NCBI GenBank assembly: GCA_002369515.1
Contig: DFFM01000005.1
Span: 1-19,253 of the forward strand
DNA: 19,253 nt
Direction of reading: 5' to 3'
Origin: Prevotella sp. UBA3776
Lineage (GTDB): Bacteria > Bacteroidota > Bacteroidia > Bacteroidales > Bacteroidaceae
Shown here: positions 4,594 to 19,253 of the stretch, piece by piece
How the letters are laid out: the number at the start of each line of letters is the position of its first letter
Numbering within the stretch: position 1 is the first letter of the stretch
Program-made: the position numbers and the translations under genes
Notes under the pieces: model-generated
Databases searched by the model: none
The model's input: only the letters and a program-made list of their open reading frames with translations
What the model was told of the DNA's origin: nothing

Positions 4594-5382
4594 ATGGAAT
4601 ACCAGATACAAGTGAAAGGCCGCCTGATGAACCTCGGGAAGCCGCAGGTGATGGGAATACTCAACGCAACGCCCGACTCGTTCTACAGCGAAAGCCGACA
4701 GCAAACCGAAAAACAAATAGCCGAACGCGCCGTGCAAATAGCAGCACAAGGAGGAAGCATCATCGACGTGGGAGCCTGCTCAACCCGACCCGGAGCACAG
4801 CAGGCGAGCCCAGAAGACGAAACGGCACGGCTGCGCACAGCCCTCGCCATTGTGCGCAGGGAGCTGCCCCAGGCGGTGGTGTCGGTCGATACGTTCCGAC
4901 CCGAGGTGGCGCGCATGGCAGTGGAAGAATACGGAGCCGACATCGTCAACGACGTCAGCGAGGGCAGCATTGAAATGTTCAGAATGGTGGCACGGTTGCG
5001 CGTACCATATATATTAATGTCGGTACAGCCCACCCTGCGCGACACGCTCTTGGCATTCGCCCAAAAAGTCCAGCAGCTGCACGCCTTGGGACAGAAAGAC
5101 ATCATCCTCGATCCGGGATTCGGTTTCGGCAAGACCCTGGAGCAGAACTACCAACTGCTCAACCAGCTCGACCATCTCTCGGTGCTTGGTCTGCCCCTAC
5201 TGGTGGGAGTGAGCCGCAAGTCGATGATTTATCGCCAGTTGGGTGTCACTCCCGACGAGGCCCTCAACGGCACCACCGTGCTCAACACCGTCGCCTTGGC
5301 GAAGGGTGCCACCATCCTGCGCGTTCACGACGTTAGAGAGGCCATAGAAGCAGTAAAACTGACCGAAAGCCTAACCCTCTAA
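4594..5382 (+). CDS. folP: Dihydropteroate synthase FolP
   Basis: Condenses p-aminobenzoate with 6-hydroxymethyl-7,8-dihydropterin diphosphate in folate synthesis; the sulfonamide target. The protein is 262 aa, typical for DHPS. Visible signatures are NATPDSF (24-30, usually NxTPDSF), an IDVGACSTRPGA segment, DPGFGFGK (173-180) and SRKS (207-210) of the TIM barrel. The frame is open far upstream inside the kinase gene, but the ATG at 4594 gives a normal N-terminus; ATG 4627 is a second, less likely choice. The stop codon TAA (5380-5382) lies inside the first unit of the octamer repeat that follows. folP beside cdaA is a familiar Bacteroidota arrangement. Confidence 0.95.
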   Translation: MEYQIQVKGRLMNLGKPQVMGILNATPDSFYSESRQQTEKQIAERAVQIAAQGGSIIDVGACSTRPGAQQASPEDETARLRTALAIVRRELPQAVVSVDTFRPEVARMAVEEYGADIVNDVSEGSIEMFRMVARLRVPYILMSVQPTLRDTLLAFAQKVQQLHALGQKDIILDPGFGFGKTLEQNYQLLNQLDHLSVLGLPLLVGVSRKSMIYRQLGVTPDEALNGTTVLNTVALAKGATILRVHDVREAIEAVKLTESLTL

Positions 5383-5457
5383 CTGTCTATCCGTCTAATT
5401 GTCTATCTGTCTAATTGTCTATCTGTCTAATTGTCTAACAGTCTATCCGTCTAACCG
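5378..5457 (+). repeat. Octamer tandem repeat TCTAWNNG, ten units
   Basis: Ten contiguous 8-bp units run from 5378 to 5457: TCTAACTG, TCTATCCG, TCTAATTG, TCTATCTG, TCTAATTG, TCTATCTG, TCTAATTG, TCTAACAG, TCTATCCG, TCTAACCG. The first contains the folP stop codon and the last ends 9 nt before the cdaA ATG. Because 8 is not a multiple of 3, its TAA triplets at 5380, 5396 and 5412 close all three forward frames. A matching array sits at 15018-15081. Confidence 0.9.
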
Positions 5458-5466
5458 TCAAGAAAT

Positions 5467-6240
5467 ATGTTTGCATTTGGAATAAAGGATTTCATCGACA
5501 TCTTCTTGGTCGCCCTGTTGCTCTACTACAGCTACAAGGTGATGAAAGAGTCGCGCTCGCTCAACGTGTTCATCGGCATCATGATTTTCGTCGTGGTGTG
5601 GCTGCTGGTGAGCCAAGTGCTGGAGATGCGCCTGTTGGGCAGCATCATGGACAAATTGGTCAGCGTGGGAGTGCTGGCACTCATTGTGCTTTTCCAGGAA
5701 GAGATACGCAAGTTTCTCTACGTCATGGGCGGCCATCAGAGCGTCAAGCCCCTGATGAACATCTTCAACTTTGGCCACGACAAGAAGGCCGAAACCGACA
5801 AGTCCATCATCATGCCCATCGTCATGTCGTGCATGAGCATGAGCAAAGGCCGCGTGGGAGCGCTCATCGTCATCGAGCGAGCCGCCCCACTCGACGACAT
5901 TGTGGCCACAGGCGACCGCATCGACGCCAACATCAACCAGCGGCTCATCGAGAACATCTTCTTCAAGAACTCCCCCCTTCACGACGGCGCCATGGTCATT
6001 TCGCAGAAACGCATCAAGGCCGCAGGCTGCATCCTGCCCGTCAGCCACGACATGGACATCCCCAAGGAGCTGGGACTGCGCCACCGCGCAGCCATGGGCA
6101 TATCGCAAGACAGCGACGCCATAGCCGTTGTCGTCAGCGAAGAGACAGGCCGCATCTCGGTGGCCATCAACGGCCAGTTCCACCTGCGCCTCTCCGCCGA
6201 GCAGCTCGAGAAACTGCTCACCGACCAGATGGCAGCCTGA
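5467..6240 (+). CDS. cdaA: Diadenylate cyclase CdaA/DacA (c-di-AMP synthase)
   Basis: Makes the second messenger c-di-AMP from two ATP at the inner membrane; c-di-AMP is tied to osmotic and cell-wall homeostasis in many bacteria. The protein is 257 aa. Three hydrophobic segments occupy about residues 8-80. The DAC domain follows, with both catalytic motifs intact: DGA at 173-175 (within SPLHDGAMVIS) and RHR at 205-207 (within GLRHRAAMGIS). Start at ATG 5467 after the octamer repeat; no strong Shine-Dalgarno is visible, as usual in this phylum. Probably co-transcribed with folP. A GlmM/CdaR partner is not present in the window. Confidence 0.94.
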   Translation: MFAFGIKDFIDIFLVALLLYYSYKVMKESRSLNVFIGIMIFVVVWLLVSQVLEMRLLGSIMDKLVSVGVLALIVLFQEEIRKFLYVMGGHQSVKPLMNIFNFGHDKKAETDKSIIMPIVMSCMSMSKGRVGALIVIERAAPLDDIVATGDRIDANINQRLIENIFFKNSPLHDGAMVISQKRIKAAGCILPVSHDMDIPKELGLRHRAAMGISQDSDAIAVVVSEETGRISVAINGQFHLRLSAEQLEKLLTDQMAA

Positions 6241-14065: not shown

Positions 14066-15010
14066 TCAACCTTTAGCCGAAAAGTCCTGACTTCTGTAAT
14101 CCTCGCCCCCGAACTTGGCGGCAACACGACGGCTGCGCTCGGCCAAATAATGGCGGAAAGCGTCGTTGCCCAGCACCTCGATGTCCTCGGACAGCCCCAG
14201 CACAAAACGGCCCACGCCCACAAAGCTGCAAACCGGCAAATCCAGCAGCCAGTGGCTACCGCCGTCGTCGCGCAGATAGCGTTCTGCCCGAGGATACTCC
14301 TCCATGAGCACATGGTGGGCCAGCAGCCCCAGCCGCAACTGCACCTGCTGCTGCTCTTCGTCGGTGAACATGAATATGTCGGTGAACATCTGCCGGTGCT
14401 TCTGCTCGTTGGACCACTGCACGTCCATCAGCTGCACAGCCTCCATGCGCGAGAGCTTGAACGTCTTGTTCATGCCGCTCGACGGCTCGAAGCAGCGAAC
14501 CTCGTTGTTGCCGTTCATGAGCATGAACGGCTCCACCACACGGTCCTTGCGCGAACGCCCGTGGGGCGACGAATAGTTCTTGAGCACCACCATCTGCTTG
14601 TACTTGATGGCCTCGTAGAGTACTTTCACGTGTTCGGCCGCGCGGCGGCGCAGCTCATCGTCGGCCAGGATGTTGAAGTCGTAGAACCGGTCGAGCTTGC
14701 GCTTTACGCCCTCCACCACGGCATTGTGAACATCCACCTGCTCGAGCAGCCGCCGAATGGTGACGGCCTCGTCCTCGGTGAACGATATGCGGTCCATCAG
14801 ACGGGCAAAGAAGGGCGACGAACGGTCGATGCTGTAGCCGCGCCCGCGCTTCTCGACCACAAAACCGCAGTCGCGGTAGAACTCCAAGTAGTAGTAGAAA
14901 TTGCGGCGCGAAACGCCCACGCGCTCGCAGATGCGGGCTACGTCCATGTCGCGGTTCTCGATGAGCAGCAACAGCAGCTCGAGTTGTTTTTCAAGTTTGT
15001 CGTGGCGCAT
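14066..15010 (-). CDS. WYL-domain transcriptional regulator with N-terminal HTH
   Basis: A 314-aa DNA-binding protein. Residues 1-60 form a winged-helix/DeoR-like HTH (IENRDMDVARICERVGVSRR, then FYYYLEFYRDCG and VEKRGRGY). The middle and C-terminal part matches the WYL (ligand-binding) architecture common in Bacteroidota: a helical linker (about 75-130), then a beta-rich domain with YSSPHGRSRKDRVVEPFMLM and an NNEVRCFEPSSG core, where the W-Y-L triad is degenerate. Ligand and targets are unknown. It follows rnhB after a 74-nt gap almost filled by the octamer repeat, and lies upstream of the susC operon on the same strand, so it could regulate that operon; this is only positional. Confidence 0.8.
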   Translation of the reverse strand: MRHDKLEKQLELLLLLIENRDMDVARICERVGVSRRNFYYYLEFYRDCGFVVEKRGRGYSIDRSSPFFARLMDRISFTEDEAVTIRRLLEQVDVHNAVVEGVKRKLDRFYDFNILADDELRRRAAEHVKVLYEAIKYKQMVVLKNYSSPHGRSRKDRVVEPFMLMNGNNEVRCFEPSSGMNKTFKLSRMEAVQLMDVQWSNEQKHRQMFTDIFMFTDEEQQQVQLRLGLLAHHVLMEEYPRAERYLRDDGGSHWLLDLPVCSFVGVGRFVLGLSEDIEVLGNDAFRHYLAERSRRVAAKFGGEDYRSQDFSAKG

Positions 15011-15017
15011 TTTCCGA

Positions 15018-15081
15018 CGGTTAGACGGTTAGACGGTTAGACATTTAGACAATTAGACATTTAGACAATTAGACAATTAGA
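15018..15081 (-). repeat. Octamer tandem repeat TCTAANNG, eight units
   Basis: Read on the minus (transcribed) strand: TCTAATTG twice, TCTAAATG, TCTAATTG, TCTAAATG, TCTAACCG three times. The array begins 3 nt after the rnhB stop and ends 7 nt before the WYL-regulator ATG. It is the same octamer family, in the same sense relative to its genes, as at 5378-5457. Confidence 0.9.
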
Positions 15082-15084
15082 TAT

Positions 15085-15726
15085 TTATTTGAAGTCCAAG
15101 GTGAGTTCTTCTGGCGGCAGCAGGGTGTAACTCATGCGGTGAAGGGGCGTGGGGCCATACTCGCGAATGGCTTCGCGATGCTTCTTGGTGGGGTAGCCTT
15201 TGTTGTTGGCCCAGTCGTATTGCGGATATTCCAGCGCCAAGGCGTCCATATAGTCGTCGCGGTAGGTCTTGGCCAGAATGGAGGCGGCGGCGATGGAGAG
15301 ATACTTCCCGTCGCCCTTCACGATGCAAGTGTGGGGCAGCGGCTCCCCTGCCCTACTCTGTCCGCCGTCCAAAGGAGCGAAGTATGGACGAAAACGGTTG
15401 CCATCAACAATGATGGCCTCGGGACGCACCTGCAACTGGTCGAGGGCGCGGTGCATGGCCAGAAAACTGGCGTTGAGGATGTTTATCTTGTCGATCTCTT
15501 CAGGTGTGACGATGCCCACCGCCCAGGCCAAAGCGTCGCGCTCAATCACTTCGCGCAGGGCATGCCGCTTGCGGTCCGTGAGCTGCTTCGAGTCGTTGAG
15601 CTCAGCGTTCTCATAGTCTTTCGGCAGCACGACAGCCGCAGCATAGACGCTGCCCGCCAAGCAACCGCGGCCAGCTTCGTCGCACCCGGCCTCAATCAGT
15701 TCATGGTAATAACAACTTTTCAGCAT
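15085..15726 (-). CDS. rnhB: Ribonuclease HII
   Basis: Cleaves the RNA strand of RNA-DNA hybrids and single ribonucleotides embedded in DNA; cytoplasmic. The protein is 213 aa from the ATG at 15726 (a TTG one codon earlier is possible). Catalytic acidic residues are visible: DEAGRG (Asp16, Glu17), Asp108 in IIVDGNRF, and Asp157 in [25 protein letters not shown] is also conserved. Between the NRFRPY and [10 protein letters not shown] motifs there is a stretch of about 14 residues (116-129) that, from memory of the family, is longer than usual. It probably heads a two-gene transcript with the WYL regulator. The region 15727-15838 upstream shows no clear promoter. Confidence 0.95.
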
Positions 15727-15838: not shown

Positions 15839-15882
15839 GTTACAGACCCCACCCCCATCCCCTCCCCTTGAGGGGCGGGGAG
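15839..15882 (-). repeat. 44-bp G-rich repeat, solo copy 1
   Basis: Minus-strand copy of the 44-bp core that starts CTCCCCGCCCCTCAAGGGG and ends GGGGTCTGTAAC. It has an imperfect hairpin (two C4/G4 steps, TCAA loop) and four G-runs. It carries the AT variant (GGGGATGGGGG). It is immediately followed on the plus strand by the ACTCCGCACAG module shared with 16826 and the window end. Confidence 0.9.
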
Positions 15883-15942
15883 ACTCCGCACAGACTGCTT
15901 ATTCCCAGCTTTAAGGGAGGAGCCAAATGTTGGGCCAGTATT

Positions 15943-16326
15943 TTCTTCATAGCAACTGCTCTTTTAATCTACCCACAACTACCCCCTGCGCGCGCTCCCC
16001 GCCCCTCAAGGGGAGGGGTTGGGGGTGGGGTCTGTAACTTTTTCATACCATCAGCTCATTTAATCTACCCACAACTACCCCCTGCGCGCGCTCCCCGCCC
16101 CTCAAGGGGAGGGGTTGGGGGTGGGGTCTGTAACTTCTTCATAGCAACTGCTCTTTTAATCAACACACAACTACCCCCTGTGCGCGCTCCCCGCCCCTCA
16201 AGGGGAGGGGTTGGGGGTGGGGTCTGTAACTTCTTCATACTAACTGCTCTTTTAATCTACCCACAACTACCCCCTGCGCGCTCTCCCCGCCCCTCAAGGG
16301 GAGGGGTTGGGGGTGGGGTCTGTAAC
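15943..16326 (+). repeat. 4 x 96-bp tandem array containing the 44-bp repeat
   Basis: Four units of exactly 96 bp: 15943-16038, 16039-16134, 16135-16230, 16231-16326. Each has a 52-bp variable part (TTCTTCATAGCAACTG, TTTAATCTACCCACAACTA, CCCCCTGCGCG) then the 44-bp core at 15995-16038, 16091-16134, 16187-16230 and 16283-16326. All four cores carry the TT variant (GGGGTTGGGGG), unlike the three solo copies. Putative G-quadruplex runs are at 16010-16030, 16106-16126, 16202-16222 and 16298-16318. The last core overlaps the end of the DUF559 gene. The period is a multiple of three, so a long plus-strand frame stays open through it, which I regard as incidental. Confidence 0.95.
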
Positions 16327-16743
16327 TTCAATTCCACTGCAGTTCACAGAAGAAACATCTCCGTCAGTCAACCCACCTTTTATCCTCCTCGCCACACCAA
16401 CAATCTCCTCCACCACACCCAATGGATTACTCCTCACCATCTCATTCGAGAATCTAATCACCACTATCCCCTGCTCACGAAGGAAACCAGTGCGTTGCTC
16501 GTCATCCTCAAACTTGAGGTCGTGAGAACTGCCATCCACCTCGACACACAATTTCAGCTCAGGACAATAAAAATCGAGGATATAGCTCCCAATTCCCTGC
16601 TGTCGTCTGAATTTAAACCCACCTGCACCACGCCCTCTCAAAACTTTCCAGATAATGGCCTCCTCTGGGGTGGAATGGTTTCTGAGCTCTTTGCGCAGCG
16701 ATGTTTGGTCAGAGTTGTTGGCTTCGGCAGAATGGTAGTGCAT
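16294..16743 (-). CDS. DUF559 (Vsr/PD-(D/E)XK-like) endonuclease-domain protein
   Basis: A 149-aa protein with the DUF559 pattern: LRKELRNHSTPEEAIIWKVL (17-36), GGFKFRRQQGIGSYILDFYC (41-60), then KLCVEVDGSSH (64-74) and GFLREQGIVVIRF (86-98). Asp57, Glu68, Asp70 and His74 are candidate active-site residues of the Vsr-like fold. The substrate is unknown. The domain ends near residue 120; a short linker follows, and the last ten residues (VTDPTPNPSP) plus TGA are encoded by the adjacent repeat core 16294-16326. ATG 16743 is the only sensible start. About 39 nt upstream lies a G-rich copy of the repeat that would sit in the 5' leader. No promoter of the usual type is seen. The gene is smaller and more accessory in character than its housekeeping neighbours. 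Confidence 0.85.
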   Translation of the reverse strand: MHYHSAEANNSDQTSLRKELRNHSTPEEAIIWKVLRGRGAGGFKFRRQQGIGSYILDFYCPELKLCVEVDGSSHDLKFEDDEQRTGFLREQGIVVIRFSNEMVRSNPLGVVEEIVGVARRIKGGLTDGDVSSVNCSGIEVTDPTPNPSP

Positions 16744-16781
16744 AGTGACATGGTGTTTTTTTGTTGATGACAGAAAGGAAG

Positions 16782-16825
16782 ATTACAGACCCCACCCCCA
16801 TCCCCTCCCCTTGAGGGGCGGGGAG
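16782..16825 (-). repeat. 44-bp G-rich repeat, copy upstream of DUF559
   Basis: Minus-strand copy ending GTAAT rather than GTAAC, AT variant, G-runs at 16790-16810. It runs directly into the 42-bp array on its outer side, sharing the TTGAGGGGCGGGGAG segment. Confidence 0.9.
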
Positions 16826-16936
16826 ACTCCGCACAGACAGCCTCCATCCTGCTTGAGGGGCGGGGAGATTCCGCACAGGCTGCCTCCTTCCTGCTTGAGG
16901 GGCGGGGAGACTCCGCACAGATTGCGTCCTCCCTGC
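16811..16936. repeat. 3 x 42-bp tandem repeat
   Basis: Units 16811-16852, 16853-16894 and 16895-16936 each start TTGAGGGGCGGGGAGA, then YTCCGCACAG, then a more variable 16 nt ending CCTGC. A fourth, degenerate start (TTGAAGGCGGAAAA) follows at 16937. The first 15 nt coincide with the end of the 44-bp core. The variable parts are similar to each other, so these are not CRISPR spacers. Confidence 0.9.
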
Positions 16937-17059
16937 TTGAAGGCGGAAAATATCGAAAACCAGCCTTTTTCTTGAAAAACGAAAGCAACAATGAATTATT
17001 GCACAGCACCGTGACCGTTTTGTCGGAAGATATTTTGCCAATTGCAGGAACATGTTTTT

Positions 17060-17208
17060 ATTGTCGAGAAATAAGAACAGATTTTCTAGAGAATTTCATC
17101 GCAACTTCGGGAGATATTTTCGTCATGTCGAGATATAATTTTGCAACGTCGGGAGATAATTTCACAGCGCCAAGAGATAATTCCACTGCGCTGGGAGGCG
17201 CCGTCCCA
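17060..17208 (+). repeat. Degenerate 21-bp tandem repeat
   Basis: Five consecutive 21-bp units at 17104, 17125, 17146, 17167 and 17188, built on ACGTCGGGAGATAATTTTGCA; related, more diverged copies lie at 17060-17103 and near 17030. The 21-bp period gives heptapeptides (FATSGDN, FTAPRDN, STALGGA) in a plus-strand frame at 16972-17259 (95 codons). I cannot show that this frame is a gene: it lacks a ribosome-binding site and starts beside the 42-bp repeats. Confidence 0.7.
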
Positions 17209-17401
17209 TTATCTACCGAGCGAAAAGCGTTAAAAAGATTGAAAAAGGGGGAGATTTAACAGAAAAAAGTCGGTTTGTGAACATATTGTGCACAAAACGG
17301 CAGTTTCTTTGCAATCGAAAACCAACGGCAACGCCCCGTCAGCAGGGGCAGTGCCAAGGATGGTGAAACTCACAAAAAAATAGATAAAAGGAGAAAACAA
17401 C

Positions 17402-17701
17402 ATGGAGAAAAACCTGATACTGAACGCGCAGACAGCCACATGGCTGTTGCAAGCAAGAGAAACGTCCTTATCAATCACTCATAAACTTTACGCAATCATG
17501 AAGAAGACCCTCACCCCCCTGCGCAAATACTACTCCGCCGTGCTGGAGCGACCCATCGACGTGCGGCAGACGCTGCTGCTCATCCAGGCCCAGGTGGCCT
17601 TTGTGCTGGCTGCGCTGCCCGCAGAATGCCCGCTGCTGTTGCGCGCAGCGTTCGCACTGTGGTTTGGCTGGAGTGTCAGAGTGTGCAAGCAGCAGCTCTG
17701 A
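17402..17701 (+). CDS. Small hydrophobic hypothetical protein
   Basis: A 99-aa frame with an AAAGGAG ribosome-binding site 8 nt before the ATG at 17402. An internal ATG at 17498 would give 67 aa (MKKTLTPLRKYYSAVLERP). The C-terminal half is a strongly hydrophobic hairpin-like segment (TLLLIQAQVAFVLAALP and LLLRAAFALWFGWSVRVC) with basic residues before it, so an inner-membrane peptide with one or two spans is plausible. Composition from about 17498 resembles the core genes. I do not recognise the family. A GC-rich hairpin (GCCCC 17333-17337, GGGGC 17345-17349) lies in the upstream region, which otherwise shows no clear promoter. Confidence 0.5.
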   Translation: MEKNLILNAQTATWLLQARETSLSITHKLYAIMKKTLTPLRKYYSAVLERPIDVRQTLLLIQAQVAFVLAALPAECPLLLRAAFALWFGWSVRVCKQQL

Positions 17702-17772
17702 GAACGGCCGTCAACAACATGTGAAACGGCTTCCACAAGCAACCCAATCGTCAACTTGCCACAAACAAAAAA

Positions 17773-17798
17773 GGGCGGCACACGCTGGTGTACCGCCC
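17773..17798 (-). terminator. Intrinsic terminator reading the minus strand
   Basis: GGGCGG (17773-17778) pairs with CCGCCC (17793-17798). After one C-A mismatch ACAC (17780-17783) pairs with GTGT (17788-17791) around a GCTG loop. On the minus strand six T's follow (17772-17767). It would end the outer-membrane-protein transcript about 150 nt after its stop, leaving the nested palindrome in the 3' UTR. Confidence 0.75.
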
Positions 17799-17833
17799 TG
17801 GGGTGTTCCTTTGAGATGGAACAGAACTGTTGT

Positions 17834-17911
17834 TTTGCAGTATGAGGTGACGTGTCTCACGTCACAAATTCACGGGATTGTGACGTGGGACACGTCACCT
17901 CATACTGCAAA
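17834..17911. repeat. Nested palindrome with 34-bp arms
   Basis: Arms 17834-17867 and 17878-17911 are inverted repeats with a single difference (17856/17889; T opposite G, so still a wobble in the plus-strand RNA) around a 10-nt loop. Each arm has its own hairpin: GTGACGTG, 3 nt, CACGTCAC at 17847-17865 and again at 17880-17898. It could fold as one long stem or as two short stems. It lies between the converging small-protein and OMP genes. No coding is evident. Confidence 0.95.
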
Positions 17912-17945
17912 GCAGACGAATAACTTTTAGATATGTAGAAGAGTA

Positions 17946-18635
17946 TCAGAACTTGAAGTTTGCACCAACTTGGGCGAAGCCCTGGAAACCATAGCCAAGT
18001 TCGACGAAACCGCGGAGGTTGCGGGTGCCGGCCTCGAAGCCGAGGGCTGAAACCTGATAGCCAAAGCGGGTGCCCTTGTCGCTCTTGATTTGATCGGTCA
18101 ATTCGCCCGGGGTGTTCTCTTTGGCATTCCCCACCATCTTGGCGCTGTTGCTGGCAATGCAGACACCAGCGGCAACCTTCGAATAGAACCCGATGTTTTT
18201 ATTTCCTGCCCATACGGCCTTTACCACCGGCATCACGGTGAAATAGTCGTTGGTTGCCTTGGCTACTTCGTGGAAGTTCCCAGATGTGTCGGCAACCAAC
18301 AATTTGTTGCTTGTGCGCTGATAGGAAAGGGCCGCTCCGACTTTTACCTTAGATGTTAAGCTATAGAGATATTGCAGGTTGAAGACGGGACCGTAGCTTG
18401 CGTCCTTCTGGGTCTTGTCGGCCAGGTCAACCTGACCAAAAGTGAAGATGGTTGCGACGCTTTTTCCGATGGCAGTGCCCAGGGCTTCACCAATGGCTTC
18501 GCCTATGTTTTTCTCGTTAGGTGTGCCTCCACCTACGCTGAAGGATATTTCAGACTTTGATTCGTTTTGTGCCATTACAGAACTGCTCATCAGGAGCATG
18601 AGAGCCACGAGACTCATGAATTGAAACTTTTTCAA
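17946..18635 (-). CDS. Outer-membrane beta-barrel protein (porin-like family)
   Basis: A 229-aa protein with signal peptide MKKFQFMSLVALMLLMSS... cleaved after about VMAQ, then alternating beta-strand patterns and a terminal Phe (QVGANFKF) typical of small outer-membrane barrels. Residues about 30-60 contain a Gly/Ala-rich helix (NIGEAIGEALGTAIGKSVATI) that is unusual before the first strands. The start codon appears to be TTG at 18635, because it supplies the MKK positive charge; the ATG at 18617 would leave the signal peptide without it. Function unknown; pore, adhesion or structural roles are possible. It has its own promoter and terminator. Confidence 0.75.
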   Translation of the reverse strand: MKKFQFMSLVALMLLMSSSVMAQNESKSEISFSVGGGTPNEKNIGEAIGEALGTAIGKSVATIFTFGQVDLADKTQKDASYGPVFNLQYLYSLTSKVKVGAALSYQRTSNKLLVADTSGNFHEVAKATNDYFTVMPVVKAVWAGNKNIGFYSKVAAGVCIASNSAKMVGNAKENTPGELTDQIKSDKGTRFGYQVSALGFEAGTRNLRGFVELGYGFQGFAQVGANFKF

Positions 18636-18746
18636 AATTGCTTTTTTTAGTGGTTATTGTTTTTTTTATTAATTTTCTTTTTGGTGGTTGTCGCGGGAAA
18701 AAGCGTTTGCCGATGTCCGACCGGGGCTTTGTTCCTTTTGACATTG

Positions 18747-18754
18747 CAAAAGTA
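18747..18754 (-). promoter_or_regulatory. -7 box of the outer-membrane-protein promoter
   Basis: On the minus strand TACTTTTG followed by CAAT fits TAnnTTTG. A weak -33-like ATTG lies 18 nt upstream (18776-18773). The predicted leader is about 105 nt and contains long A tracts. Confidence 0.5.
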
Positions 18755-18918
18755 GGACGTTTTTCGCTGGCACAATAATATTTTGCGAAAAAACGAAGAA
18801 GGACGTTCGGACAATCGCGCCATTTTAGGACAAACACGACAAAAGGCATTTTTTCTTGTCGCAAAGAGCTGCAAAACGAGCAAAACAAGGGGAAAAATAT
18901 AAATGTACGCGCGCGAAC

Positions 18919-18943
18919 ATTATATATATATATTTATATATAT
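18919..18943. repeat. TA-dinucleotide tract
   Basis: A nearly pure alternating A/T run of 25 nt, flanked on the left by a GCGCGCG tract (18909-18915). This easily melted block separates the OMP promoter region from the right-hand repeats. No gene is seen in 18755-19253. Confidence 0.8.
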
Positions 18944-18988
18944 GCTGAGCTTGCTGGCGGTCAGCGGGAAAGGGGGAACATAAAAGAA

Positions 18989-19079
18989 CTTGGAATGAAA
19001 CAGGGCGACCTGGAATGGGAAAAAGAATGGCTTGGAATGAGAATGTATGGCTTGGAATGAGAATGAATGGCTTGGAATG
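18989..19079. repeat. About 20-bp tandem repeat around CTTGGAATG
   Basis: CTTGGAATG (once CCTGGAATG) starts at 18989, 19009, 19031, 19051 and 19071. The last three units (ATGGCTTGGAATGAGAATGW, 19027-19046 and 19047-19066, then a partial copy) are almost identical. It abuts the 44-bp repeat copy at 19086. Confidence 0.85.
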
Positions 19080-19085
19080 GGTTAA

Positions 19086-19253
19086 GTTACAGACCCCACC
19101 CCCATCCCCTCCCCTTGAGGGGCGGGGAGAGTACGCAGGGGGGCGTTGTGTGTTCATTAAATGAGCTGATGGTATGAAGAAGTTACAGACCCAACTCTTG
19201 TCTCCCCGCTTAAATCTGGGAAAAAACTGCCTGTGCGGAATCTCCCCGCCCCT
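19086..19253 (-). repeat. Inverted 168-bp mosaic copy with the 44-bp repeat
   Basis: Read on the minus strand, 19253-19086 aligns without gaps to 15871-16038 on the plus strand over 168 bp. Shared blocks are AGGGGCGGGGAGA, TCCGCACAG, TTCCCAG, TTTAAG, GTTGGG, TTCTTCATA, the 96-bp-unit spacer and the 44-bp core (19086-19129, AT variant, G-runs at 19094-19114). The block nearest the window edge (12 nt from 19242) is the start of another core copy and is cut off. Confidence 0.85.

What the first reader, a model, noticed from the sequence alone, without database searches (positions are those of the whole stretch)
15839..16825. DUF559 nuclease gene embedded in its own family of G-rich hairpin repeats: candidate nuclease-driven repeat system
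Seen: one 44-bp repeat occurs seven times within 3.3 kb, and copies in inverted orientation bracket a DUF559 gene. Known: REP sequences paired with RAYT enzymes show that a single nuclease gene can be tied to dispersed palindromic repeats; DUF559 shares the Vsr/PD-(D/E)XK-like fold. Inferred: the DUF559 protein may recognise, nick or spread this repeat, making a REP-like system built on a different nuclease.
Basis: partly seen in the sequence, partly recalled or inferred. Interest (0 to 1): 0.85.

Follow-up and report, generated by a model that had tools for sequence, protein, structure and literature searches.

The report
DNA-cutting gene bracketed by triplex repeats
A small bacterial gene for a likely DNA-cutting enzyme sits between copies of a folding DNA repeat, and the same pairing recurs in very different bacteria, which suggests that the enzyme is the missing partner that spreads a long-known but unexplained family of repeats.

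Summary
In detail: seven copies of one repeat lie in 3.3 kb, and inverted copies bracket an intact DUF559 gene whose stop codon lies inside the nearest copy. The repeat is dispersed in this genome (47 copies at up to 3 mismatches; reversed control 0). It has the form of an intrastrand-triplex repeat (arm, loop, arm, mirrored tail): the BoxC/PIT/TM kind, for which the 2015 study found no mobility gene. A fold-only finder places such motifs within 350 bp of DUF559 in 110 of 142 loci from many phyla (1.94 against 0.095 per kb further out); two further samples give 13 of 18 and 7 of 10; E. coli K-12 ycjD is a named case. Three other gene families in repeat-bearing genomes give 0 of 30, 0 of 30 and 0 of 29. 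The tail covaries with its own arm, repeat orientation follows DUF559 ancestry, and occupied and empty sites of a DUF559 element of about 0.5 kb were seen. Best reading: DUF559, a Vsr-fold nuclease, is the partner that drives these repeats, as RAYT does for REP but with unrelated chemistry. Association shown; cutting and movement inferred. Quadruplexes are not the conserved feature, and repeats persist in genomes without DUF559.

The parts
16294..16743 (-). DUF559 (Vsr-fold, PD-(D/E)XK-like) nuclease gene, 149 aa; stop codon in the loop of the adjacent repeat
   Evidence: PF04480 E 2e-31; frame; model nearest to 3hrl and 3r3p, more weakly 1vsr; domain residues E16, D45, E56, H62 the same in 143 of 143 sequences
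15846..15880 (-). triplex-type repeat copy 1 (arm-loop-arm-linker-mirrored tail, read on this strand)
15997..16031 (+). triplex-type repeat copy 2, in the 96-bp array
16093..16127 (+). triplex-type repeat copy 3, in the 96-bp array
16189..16223 (+). triplex-type repeat copy 4, in the 96-bp array
16285..16319 (+). triplex-type repeat copy 5, overlapping the 3' end of the DUF559 gene, tail toward the gene
16789..16823 (-). triplex-type repeat copy 6, upstream of the DUF559 gene, tail toward the gene
19093..19127 (-). triplex-type repeat copy 7, 2.3 kb beyond copy 6
15929..16312 (.). 96-bp direct tandem array that holds copies 2 to 5 (start-to-start spacing 96, 96, 96)
   Evidence: family D1
16812..16947 (.). 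three 42-bp spaced partial copies (hairpin arm plus CCGCACAG spacer) beside copy 6
   Evidence: family D2

Best explanation
The window holds a DUF559 nuclease gene together with the folding repeats that are its partner. Each repeat is a G/C-rich hairpin followed by a tail that mirrors the hairpin's purine arm, so that one strand can fold into an intrastrand triplex; these are repeats of the BoxC/PIT/TM kind. Shown here: DUF559 genes of many phyla carry such repeats at one or both ends, the tail covaries with its own arm, repeat orientation follows DUF559 ancestry, and in one genus a repeat-DUF559-repeat unit of about 0.5 kb is present or absent between the same two genes. Inferred: the nuclease recognises the folded repeat, on exposed single strand or an extruded cruciform, and nicks or cuts beside it; repair or template switching by the host then copies repeat plus gene, or the repeat alone, to new sites. 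I saw no target duplication, which fits break repair better than a classical transposase. Solo, paired and tandem copies, as in this genome, would be non-autonomous derivatives, as REPs are to RAYT.
For: Proximity: 274 motifs within 350 bp of DUF559 (1.94/kb) against 70 elsewhere in the same loci (0.095/kb); 110 of 142 loci: 2 of 2 own, 26 of 30 family, 56 of 80 genome-collection, 26 of 30 phylum. 18 mid-ranked loci: 13 with motifs, 1.75 against 0.035/kb. Ten of 43 plasmid-collection records: 7 with motifs, 2.16 against 0.245/kb. Specificity in 20 repeat-bearing genomes: GIY-YIG 0 of 30, IVP 0 of 30, Y1 transposase 0 of 29 usable loci. Inverted flanks: above the 99th percentile of 3615 shifted controls in 54 of 75 loci, p 1.6e-31. 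Covariation, one hairpin per locus, 86 loci: mirror better in 55, direct in 11, tie in 20; own tail matched at 85% or more in 76% against 26% for swapped tails. Orientation on the DUF559 tree: 7 changes against about 23.5 shuffled, 0 of 500 as low. Repeat likeness falls with protein distance, r -0.18, 0 of 2000 permutations. Genome co-occurrence. E. coli YcjD is DUF559 (1.4e-49) and published repeat no. 9 lies 167 bp from its end. Occupied and empty fmt sites; one element at two unrelated sites. dN/dS 0.04-0.21 in the 9 of 13 pairs with finite dS, some of them near saturation. Sequence and fold neighbours include a homing endonuclease.
Against: No binding, cutting or movement was shown. 32 of 142 DUF559 loci have no strict motif within 350 bp. 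8 of 51 repeat-bearing phylum genomes have no DUF559 hit; E. coli has the motif in 5377 of 5426 genomes but ycjD in 3365. Of 30 repeat loci found by pattern (one per genome), only 1 had DUF559 within about 1.5 kb by a strict motif test that may undercount. G246 holds 49 window-type copies although none of the 4 DUF559 genes read there (of 6) is of the window subfamily. No rejoining activity is known for this fold (recalled). The published in vivo footprint gave no stable triplex (PMC4666352). The Caulobacter DUF559 protein VsrA was studied as a Vsr-like mismatch enzyme (passage). The 142 loci are best-scoring matches, and co-occurrence, tree and distance tests share ancestry.
Confidence: 0.62

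Rival explanations
1. The repeats are fragile or insertion-prone places, and DUF559 genes, mobile by some other route, land or survive there. The nuclease does not act on the repeat.
For: Triplex repeats are linked with rearrangement in E. coli (PMC4666352). Many DUF559 genes lie in arrays of repeats, as in the window.
Against: Three other gene families of repeat-bearing genomes show none (0 of 30, 0 of 30, 0 of 29). Orientation follows DUF559 ancestry. The two empty fmt junctions read base by base carry no repeat, so repeat and gene arrived, or left, together.
Confidence: 0.17
2. Another enzyme of the host or of a mobile element moves the repeats, and DUF559 is a passenger gene kept for its own function, for example Vsr-like repair.
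For: DUF559 is not known to rejoin DNA; VsrA of Caulobacter acts as a Vsr-like enzyme (passage in PMC12907096). 17 of 20 repeat-bearing genomes also hold Y1 transposase matches.
Against: 3 of the 20 repeat-bearing genomes (G600, G760, G504) have no Y1 match, and Y1 genes there have no triplex motifs beside them, 0 of 29. The small elements read (L297, L304, L308, L309, L324) have room for DUF559 alone. I did not search for other transposase families.
Confidence: 0.13
3. The repeats are expression signals of DUF559 (terminators, pause or translation-coupling hairpins) and have no role as substrate.
For: The window gene's stop codon lies in a repeat, 17 of 24 homologues that I read end in or run into repeat-like residues, and in L309, L324 and L313 an in-frame ATG before the right repeat could start the next gene.
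Against: Repeats lie on both sides, in orientations that differ between clades, and most copies are dispersed far from DUF559. The PIT form showed no promoter or terminator activity in E. coli, as reported in PMC4666352.
Confidence: 0.06
4. The link is a by-product of composition or of my choice of loci.
For: The 142 loci were the best-scoring matches of three searches; G/C-rich hairpins are common in some genomes.
Against: Controls inside the same loci (0.095/kb), shifted positions (54 of 75 above the 99th percentile), other families in repeat-bearing genomes (0 of 89 in all) and two further samples (13 of 18, 7 of 10) all agree.
Confidence: 0.02

Closest known systems
BoxC / PIT / TM intrastrand-triplex repeats (Holder et al. 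2015, PMC4666352, and work cited there)
   Same: Order pyrimidine arm, purine arm, mirrored third strand; G/C-rich; dispersed, single or in inverted pairs; in E. coli one copy lies beside the DUF559 gene ycjD.
   Different: Described without a partner gene: the paper says it never found mobility functions near them, and the words endonuclease and DUF have no occurrence in its main text. The window sequence does not fit the E. coli consensus letter for letter, and the paper's E. coli copies are all intergenic while some here are read in frame.
REP / RAYT (repeat extragenic palindromes with a Y1 HUH transposase; recalled, listings)
   Same: One small enzyme gene flanked by inverted palindromic repeats, with many dispersed solo or paired copies elsewhere.
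   Different: The enzyme here is DUF559, not Y1; no tail tetranucleotide test was made; the fold is a triplex-type hairpin with mirrored tail; 3 of 20 repeat-bearing genomes have no Y1 match.
Vsr-like homing endonuclease I-Bth0305I (3r3p)
   Same: Same fold, and found by sequence profile (5.1e-7) and by structure (3.5e-4); a nuclease that spreads its own gene.
   Different: It belongs to a phage intron (recalled; the entry is titled mobile intron protein); here the same element sits at unrelated sites and ends in folding repeats.
E. coli Vsr and Caulobacter VsrA
   Same: Vsr fold (1vsr, Foldseek E 2.8e-2, rank 12); VsrA contains a DUF559 domain.
   Different: They are studied as mismatch-repair enzymes paired with methylation; no repeat partner is described in the passage I saw.
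Rickettsia palindromic elements and MITEs (recalled; listings)
   Same: Short palindromic repeats, some read in frame inside genes, without their own transposase.
   Different: Different sequence and no triplex rule that I know of; here a candidate enzyme is bracketed by the repeats.

Membership tests
BoxC/PIT/TM triplex repeats | pyrimidine arm, purine arm, third strand that mirrors the purine arm | tested here: met
   all seven window copies are found by the fold-only finder
BoxC/PIT/TM triplex repeats | E. coli consensus sequence CCCTCNCCC... | tested here: not met
   window copies read CCCCGCCCC...GGGGAGGGG...GGGGTGGGG; member of the structural kind, not of the E. coli sequence family
BoxC/PIT/TM triplex repeats | triplex formation by the strand | not testable with these tools
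   the folding program has no triplex model
DUF559 (PF04480) | profile score above the curated cut-off | tested here: met
   108.5 bits against 20.6
DUF559 (PF04480) | nuclease activity of this protein | not testable with these tools
   needs a bench test; conserved acidic residues and fold only
REP/RAYT | RAYT: Y1 (HUH) domain in the flanked gene | tested here: not met
   the window protein matches DUF559 and, below cut-off, MTES_1575, no Y1
REP/RAYT | enzyme gene flanked by inverted palindromes that are dispersed in the genome | tested here: met
REP/RAYT | tetranucleotide tag such as GTAG beside the hairpin | not tested
   no count made
Homing endonuclease element | homing-type nuclease fold | tested here: met
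   3r3p by sequence and structure
Homing endonuclease element | restricted to one allelic site, usually in an intron or intein | tested here: not met
   the same element at unrelated sites in two genomes of one genus; introns and inteins were not searched for
DDE insertion sequence or MITE | target-site duplication | tested here: inconclusive
   none seen in the few occupied and empty fmt junctions read; no statistic
DDE insertion sequence or MITE | terminal inverted repeats | tested here: met
   matched ends in the elements of L297, L304, L309; 54 of 75 loci above control

The most novel reading that the evidence does not exclude
DUF559 nucleases and intrastrand-triplex repeats form one bacteria-wide class of selfish element, in which a repair-type nuclease that cannot rejoin DNA recognises a three-stranded DNA fold and spreads it through host break repair. 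The orphan BoxC/PIT/TM repeats, E. coli's included, are its non-autonomous copies, and ycjD is its E. coli member.
Probability: 0.5. Interest if true: 0.95.

Novelty: categorically new. Interest (0 to 1): 0.88.

Why it matters
BoxC/PIT/TM repeats have been known since the 1990s, occur in more than 260 genomes and go with genome instability (PMC4666352), yet no partner gene or way of spreading was known. A nuclease family that sits between such repeats in many phyla makes the question directly testable, in E. coli K-12 with ycjD. If the nuclease acts on the fold, it would be a natural structure-specific enzyme for intrastrand triplex DNA and a class of mobile element without transposase chemistry. 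It would also explain repeat-coded ends such as PTPNPSP in predicted proteins, seen here in 17 of 24 homologues read.

Tried and rejected
G-quadruplex as the conserved property: rejected; 82 of 272 motifs fit four runs of three or more G, while asymmetric versions keep the mirror rule. Plain DNA folding of window copies: not informative, z -0.94 to -1.45. A clean empty site at E. coli ycjD: not found; the three strains without ycjD that I opened carry efflux genes there, as PMC12817139 reports (passages). A conserved stem mismatch as a Vsr-like signal: 63 of 272 motifs have one, of mixed types, no claim. Type A/B pairing of the two ends: looked at in the table, not counted. Frame preservation of in-frame insertions: examples read, no statistic; host names there are my reading, not a profile search. 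The mispaired-flank control (median 19 against 10; 68 of 139 above the 99th percentile) was weak because ends of different loci share a consensus and two loci hold runs of N; one search replaces it. The both-strand mirror test (263 against 124) counted hairpins twice; one search is the one-per-locus version. The direct-tail finder gives a similar enrichment (210 motifs near, 19-fold) because most arms are nearly symmetric, so only speaks for the mirror.

Sample limits: the 142 loci are the best matches of three searches plus two of this genome; some share a site (L056 and L058 are 98.9% identical). L003 was left out of the counts. The 10 I picked for variety from 25 listed of 43 records. The 20 genomes of the negative controls I picked among repeat-bearing ones; the control loci are the 30 best matches of each family. 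The 12 genomes I picked; of the DUF559 genes in the five without repeats only part were read. The 24 homologues I picked from 120 listed of 454. The E. coli genome among the 14 controls gave no DUF559 match, while NC_000913 has ycjD; I do not know which strain the control is.

Literature: searches found no paper that links DUF559 or ycjD with these repeats; of the 14 papers with the word DUF559 I saw passages of two and the rest as listing only. The library lacks most subscription journals and preprints. Seen: PMC4666352 outline, passages, sections 12 and 15, first parts of sections 3 and 20; passages of PMC12907096, PMC12308824, PMC8044849, PMC12817139, PMC1189080.

Full report
What is in the window. 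The window is contig 23 of an unnamed, 66.7%-complete genome of 2.40 Mb. Seven copies of one 38-44-bp core lie at 15845-19129, four of them in a 96-bp tandem array. The DUF559 gene is 16294-16743 on the minus strand. Its nearest repeats have opposite orientation with both tails toward the gene, and the frame ends in the loop of the downstream copy, so the protein ends PTPNPSP. Of 24 homologues that I picked and read (454 found, 120 listed), 17 end in or run into the same kind of residues. The core occurs 47 times in the genome at up to 3 mismatches, reversed control 0. Two more DUF559 genes of this genome, one read in frame within an ABC-F-like gene and one before an argG-like gene (names by my reading), are bracketed by other inverted G-rich hairpins.

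What the repeat is. Each copy reads pyrimidine arm, loop, purine arm, short linker, purine-rich tail. The tail is the mirror of the purine arm, with T or A opposite A and G opposite G, the rule for a purine-motif intrastrand triplex (section 3 of PMC4666352). A literal search for the proteobacterial form led to Holder et al. 2015 (PMC4666352): the E. [quoted passage not shown] That paper reports no flanking mobility gene, and the words endonuclease and DUF have no occurrence in its main text. It reports triplex formation in vitro and no stable triplex in vivo.

The repeat goes with DUF559. Flanks of 30 DUF559 loci of the family showed, in most, matched inverted repeats that differ between loci but agree within a locus. 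I then had 80 named loci from the genome collection, whose titles name many phyla, and 30 from the phylum. With a finder that uses only the fold, motifs are 20 times denser within 350 bp of DUF559 than elsewhere in the same loci; 110 of 142 loci have at least one: 2 of 2, 26 of 30, 56 of 80 and 26 of 30 in the four groups. 18 middle-ranked loci give 13. Ten of 43 records found by an E. coli YcjD search of the plasmid collection, picked for variety, give 7; those seven are Neisseria, Sphingomonas, Synechocystis, Deinococcus, Pseudanabaena, Azospirillum lipoferum and Sinorhizobium. In 20 repeat-bearing genomes the finder gives 0 of 30 GIY-YIG, 0 of 30 four-helix IVP and 0 of 29 Y1 transposase loci. 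E. coli K-12 is a good anchor: YcjD is DUF559 (E 1.4e-49), its gene is at 1351407-1351760, published repeat no. 9 is at 1351204-1351239, 167 bp beyond its end, and by my reading the gene's stop codon lies in a degraded copy.

Presence across genomes. In 399 family genomes the exact core CCCCACCCCCNNCCCCTCCC occurs in 17 (reversed control: one hit in each of 2 genomes), of which 16 have DUF559, against 152 of 399 overall (P 1.3e-6). In 395 phylum genomes the pattern GGAGAGGGNNNGGGTGAGG occurs in 51 (reversed control: one hit in each of 3 genomes); strong DUF559 (E up to 1e-15) is in 42 of these 51 and in 120 of the other 344 (P 1.2e-10; with all hits 43 of 51 and 179 of 344, P 5.9e-6). Shared ancestry is not corrected for. 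Window-type repeats number 47, 148, 4, 30, 24 and 18 in the six genomes where I saw the window's DUF559 subfamily (56-68% identity), 0 in five other genomes that I picked, and 49 in G246, where none of the four DUF559 genes read (of six) belongs to it. Against strict dependence: 8 of 51 repeat genomes lack a DUF559 hit; E. coli has the motif in 5377 of 5426 genomes (BLAST limit E 10) but ycjD in 3365; of 30 repeat loci found by pattern only 1 had DUF559 nearby by a strict motif test.

Coupling of nuclease and repeat. Taking one clearly asymmetric hairpin per locus (86 loci), the downstream sequence fits the mirror of the arm better than a direct copy in 55, worse in 11, equally in 20; its own tail fits at 85% or more in 76% of loci, tails of other loci in 26%. 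The letters change between phyla while the mirror rule stays. On a tree of 143 DUF559 domains, loci with both tails outward (30) or inward (45 with the window) need 7 changes against a shuffled mean of about 23.5, 0 of 500 as low; one 45-row clade holds 24 outward and no inward loci. The tree is short of columns and many forks are open. Repeat similarity falls with protein distance (109 loci, r -0.18, 0 of 2000 permutations; still -0.15 among distant pairs), a weak effect.

Signs of mobility. One element is 79.7% identical over 438 bp in two genomes of one genus (L297 of G078, L304 of G235) with unrelated flanks; the right repeat is better conserved than the gene and homology ends with its tail. 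In the genus of G235, of 30 fmt loci fetched, three carry a DUF559 element between a CBS-domain gene and fmt (533, 571 and 628 bases from the stop codon to the fmt core), two read-out relatives have 22 and 23 bases there, and one (L313, 166 bases) keeps both ends without DUF559. In L309, L324 and L313 the usual fmt start codon is gone and an in-frame ATG lies inside the element by my reading; in L308 the fmt ATG is kept. I see no target duplication. At an RNase HI-like gene L042, L212, L218 and L233 are occupied at slightly different codons, L212 with an eroded repeat. In-frame repeats also occur alone, as in ArgC of L291. The gene looks kept by selection: dN/dS 0.04-0.21 in the 9 of 13 pairs with finite dS, and E16, D45, E56 and H62 of the domain are the same in 143 of 143.

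Enzyme. The window domain model (mean pLDDT 86) is closest to the DUF559 structure 3hrl (E 6.5e-8), then to the homing endonuclease I-Bth0305I (3r3p, 3.5e-4); mitochondrial ribosome proteins and restriction enzymes come next, and Vsr (1vsr) is weaker (2.8e-2). The profile finds 3hrl and 3r3p by sequence. A Caulobacter DUF559 protein is described as Vsr-like (passage in PMC12907096). A nuclease of this fold that promotes spread of its own gene therefore has a precedent; I know of no rejoining activity.

Verdict. The association of DUF559 with intrastrand-triplex repeats is well supported and was not found in print in the searches made. Recognition, cutting and copying are inference. It works like REP/RAYT but is not RAYT, and does not meet the tests for homing introns; target duplication was not seen in the few junctions read. 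I rate the combination categorically new, while its parts are known.

Noticed in passing
window 5371-5467 and 15009-15087: Two arrays of an 8-bp tandem unit in inverted orientation about 9.5 kb apart, up to 85% complementary over 73 nt.
   Followed up: no
window 17831-17914: Long inverted repeat, 37-nt arms 95% complementary with 10 nt between them.
   Followed up: no
L309, L324, L313 (fmt junction): The element seems to supply a new in-frame start codon and a short N-terminal extension to the downstream gene fmt.
   Followed up: partly
L001, L034, L048, L049, L056, L195: DUF559 read in one open frame inside conserved genes (ABC-F-like, SpoIID-like, epimerase-like, MetH-like by my reading), with repeats coding the junctions.
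   Followed up: partly
E. coli fabI-sapF junction (L204-L207): ycjD and an efflux operon are alternative contents of the same junction (PMC12817139 passages).
   Followed up: partly
PMC12308824 (passages): Legionella experimental evolution reports recombination hotspots at segments with a transposase and a DUF559 gene; whether triplex repeats flank them was not checked.
   Followed up: no
L272, L340, L344 and similar: Some DUF559 genes sit between two inverted repeat pairs (four copies), as if the gene lay between two miniature paired elements.
   Followed up: no
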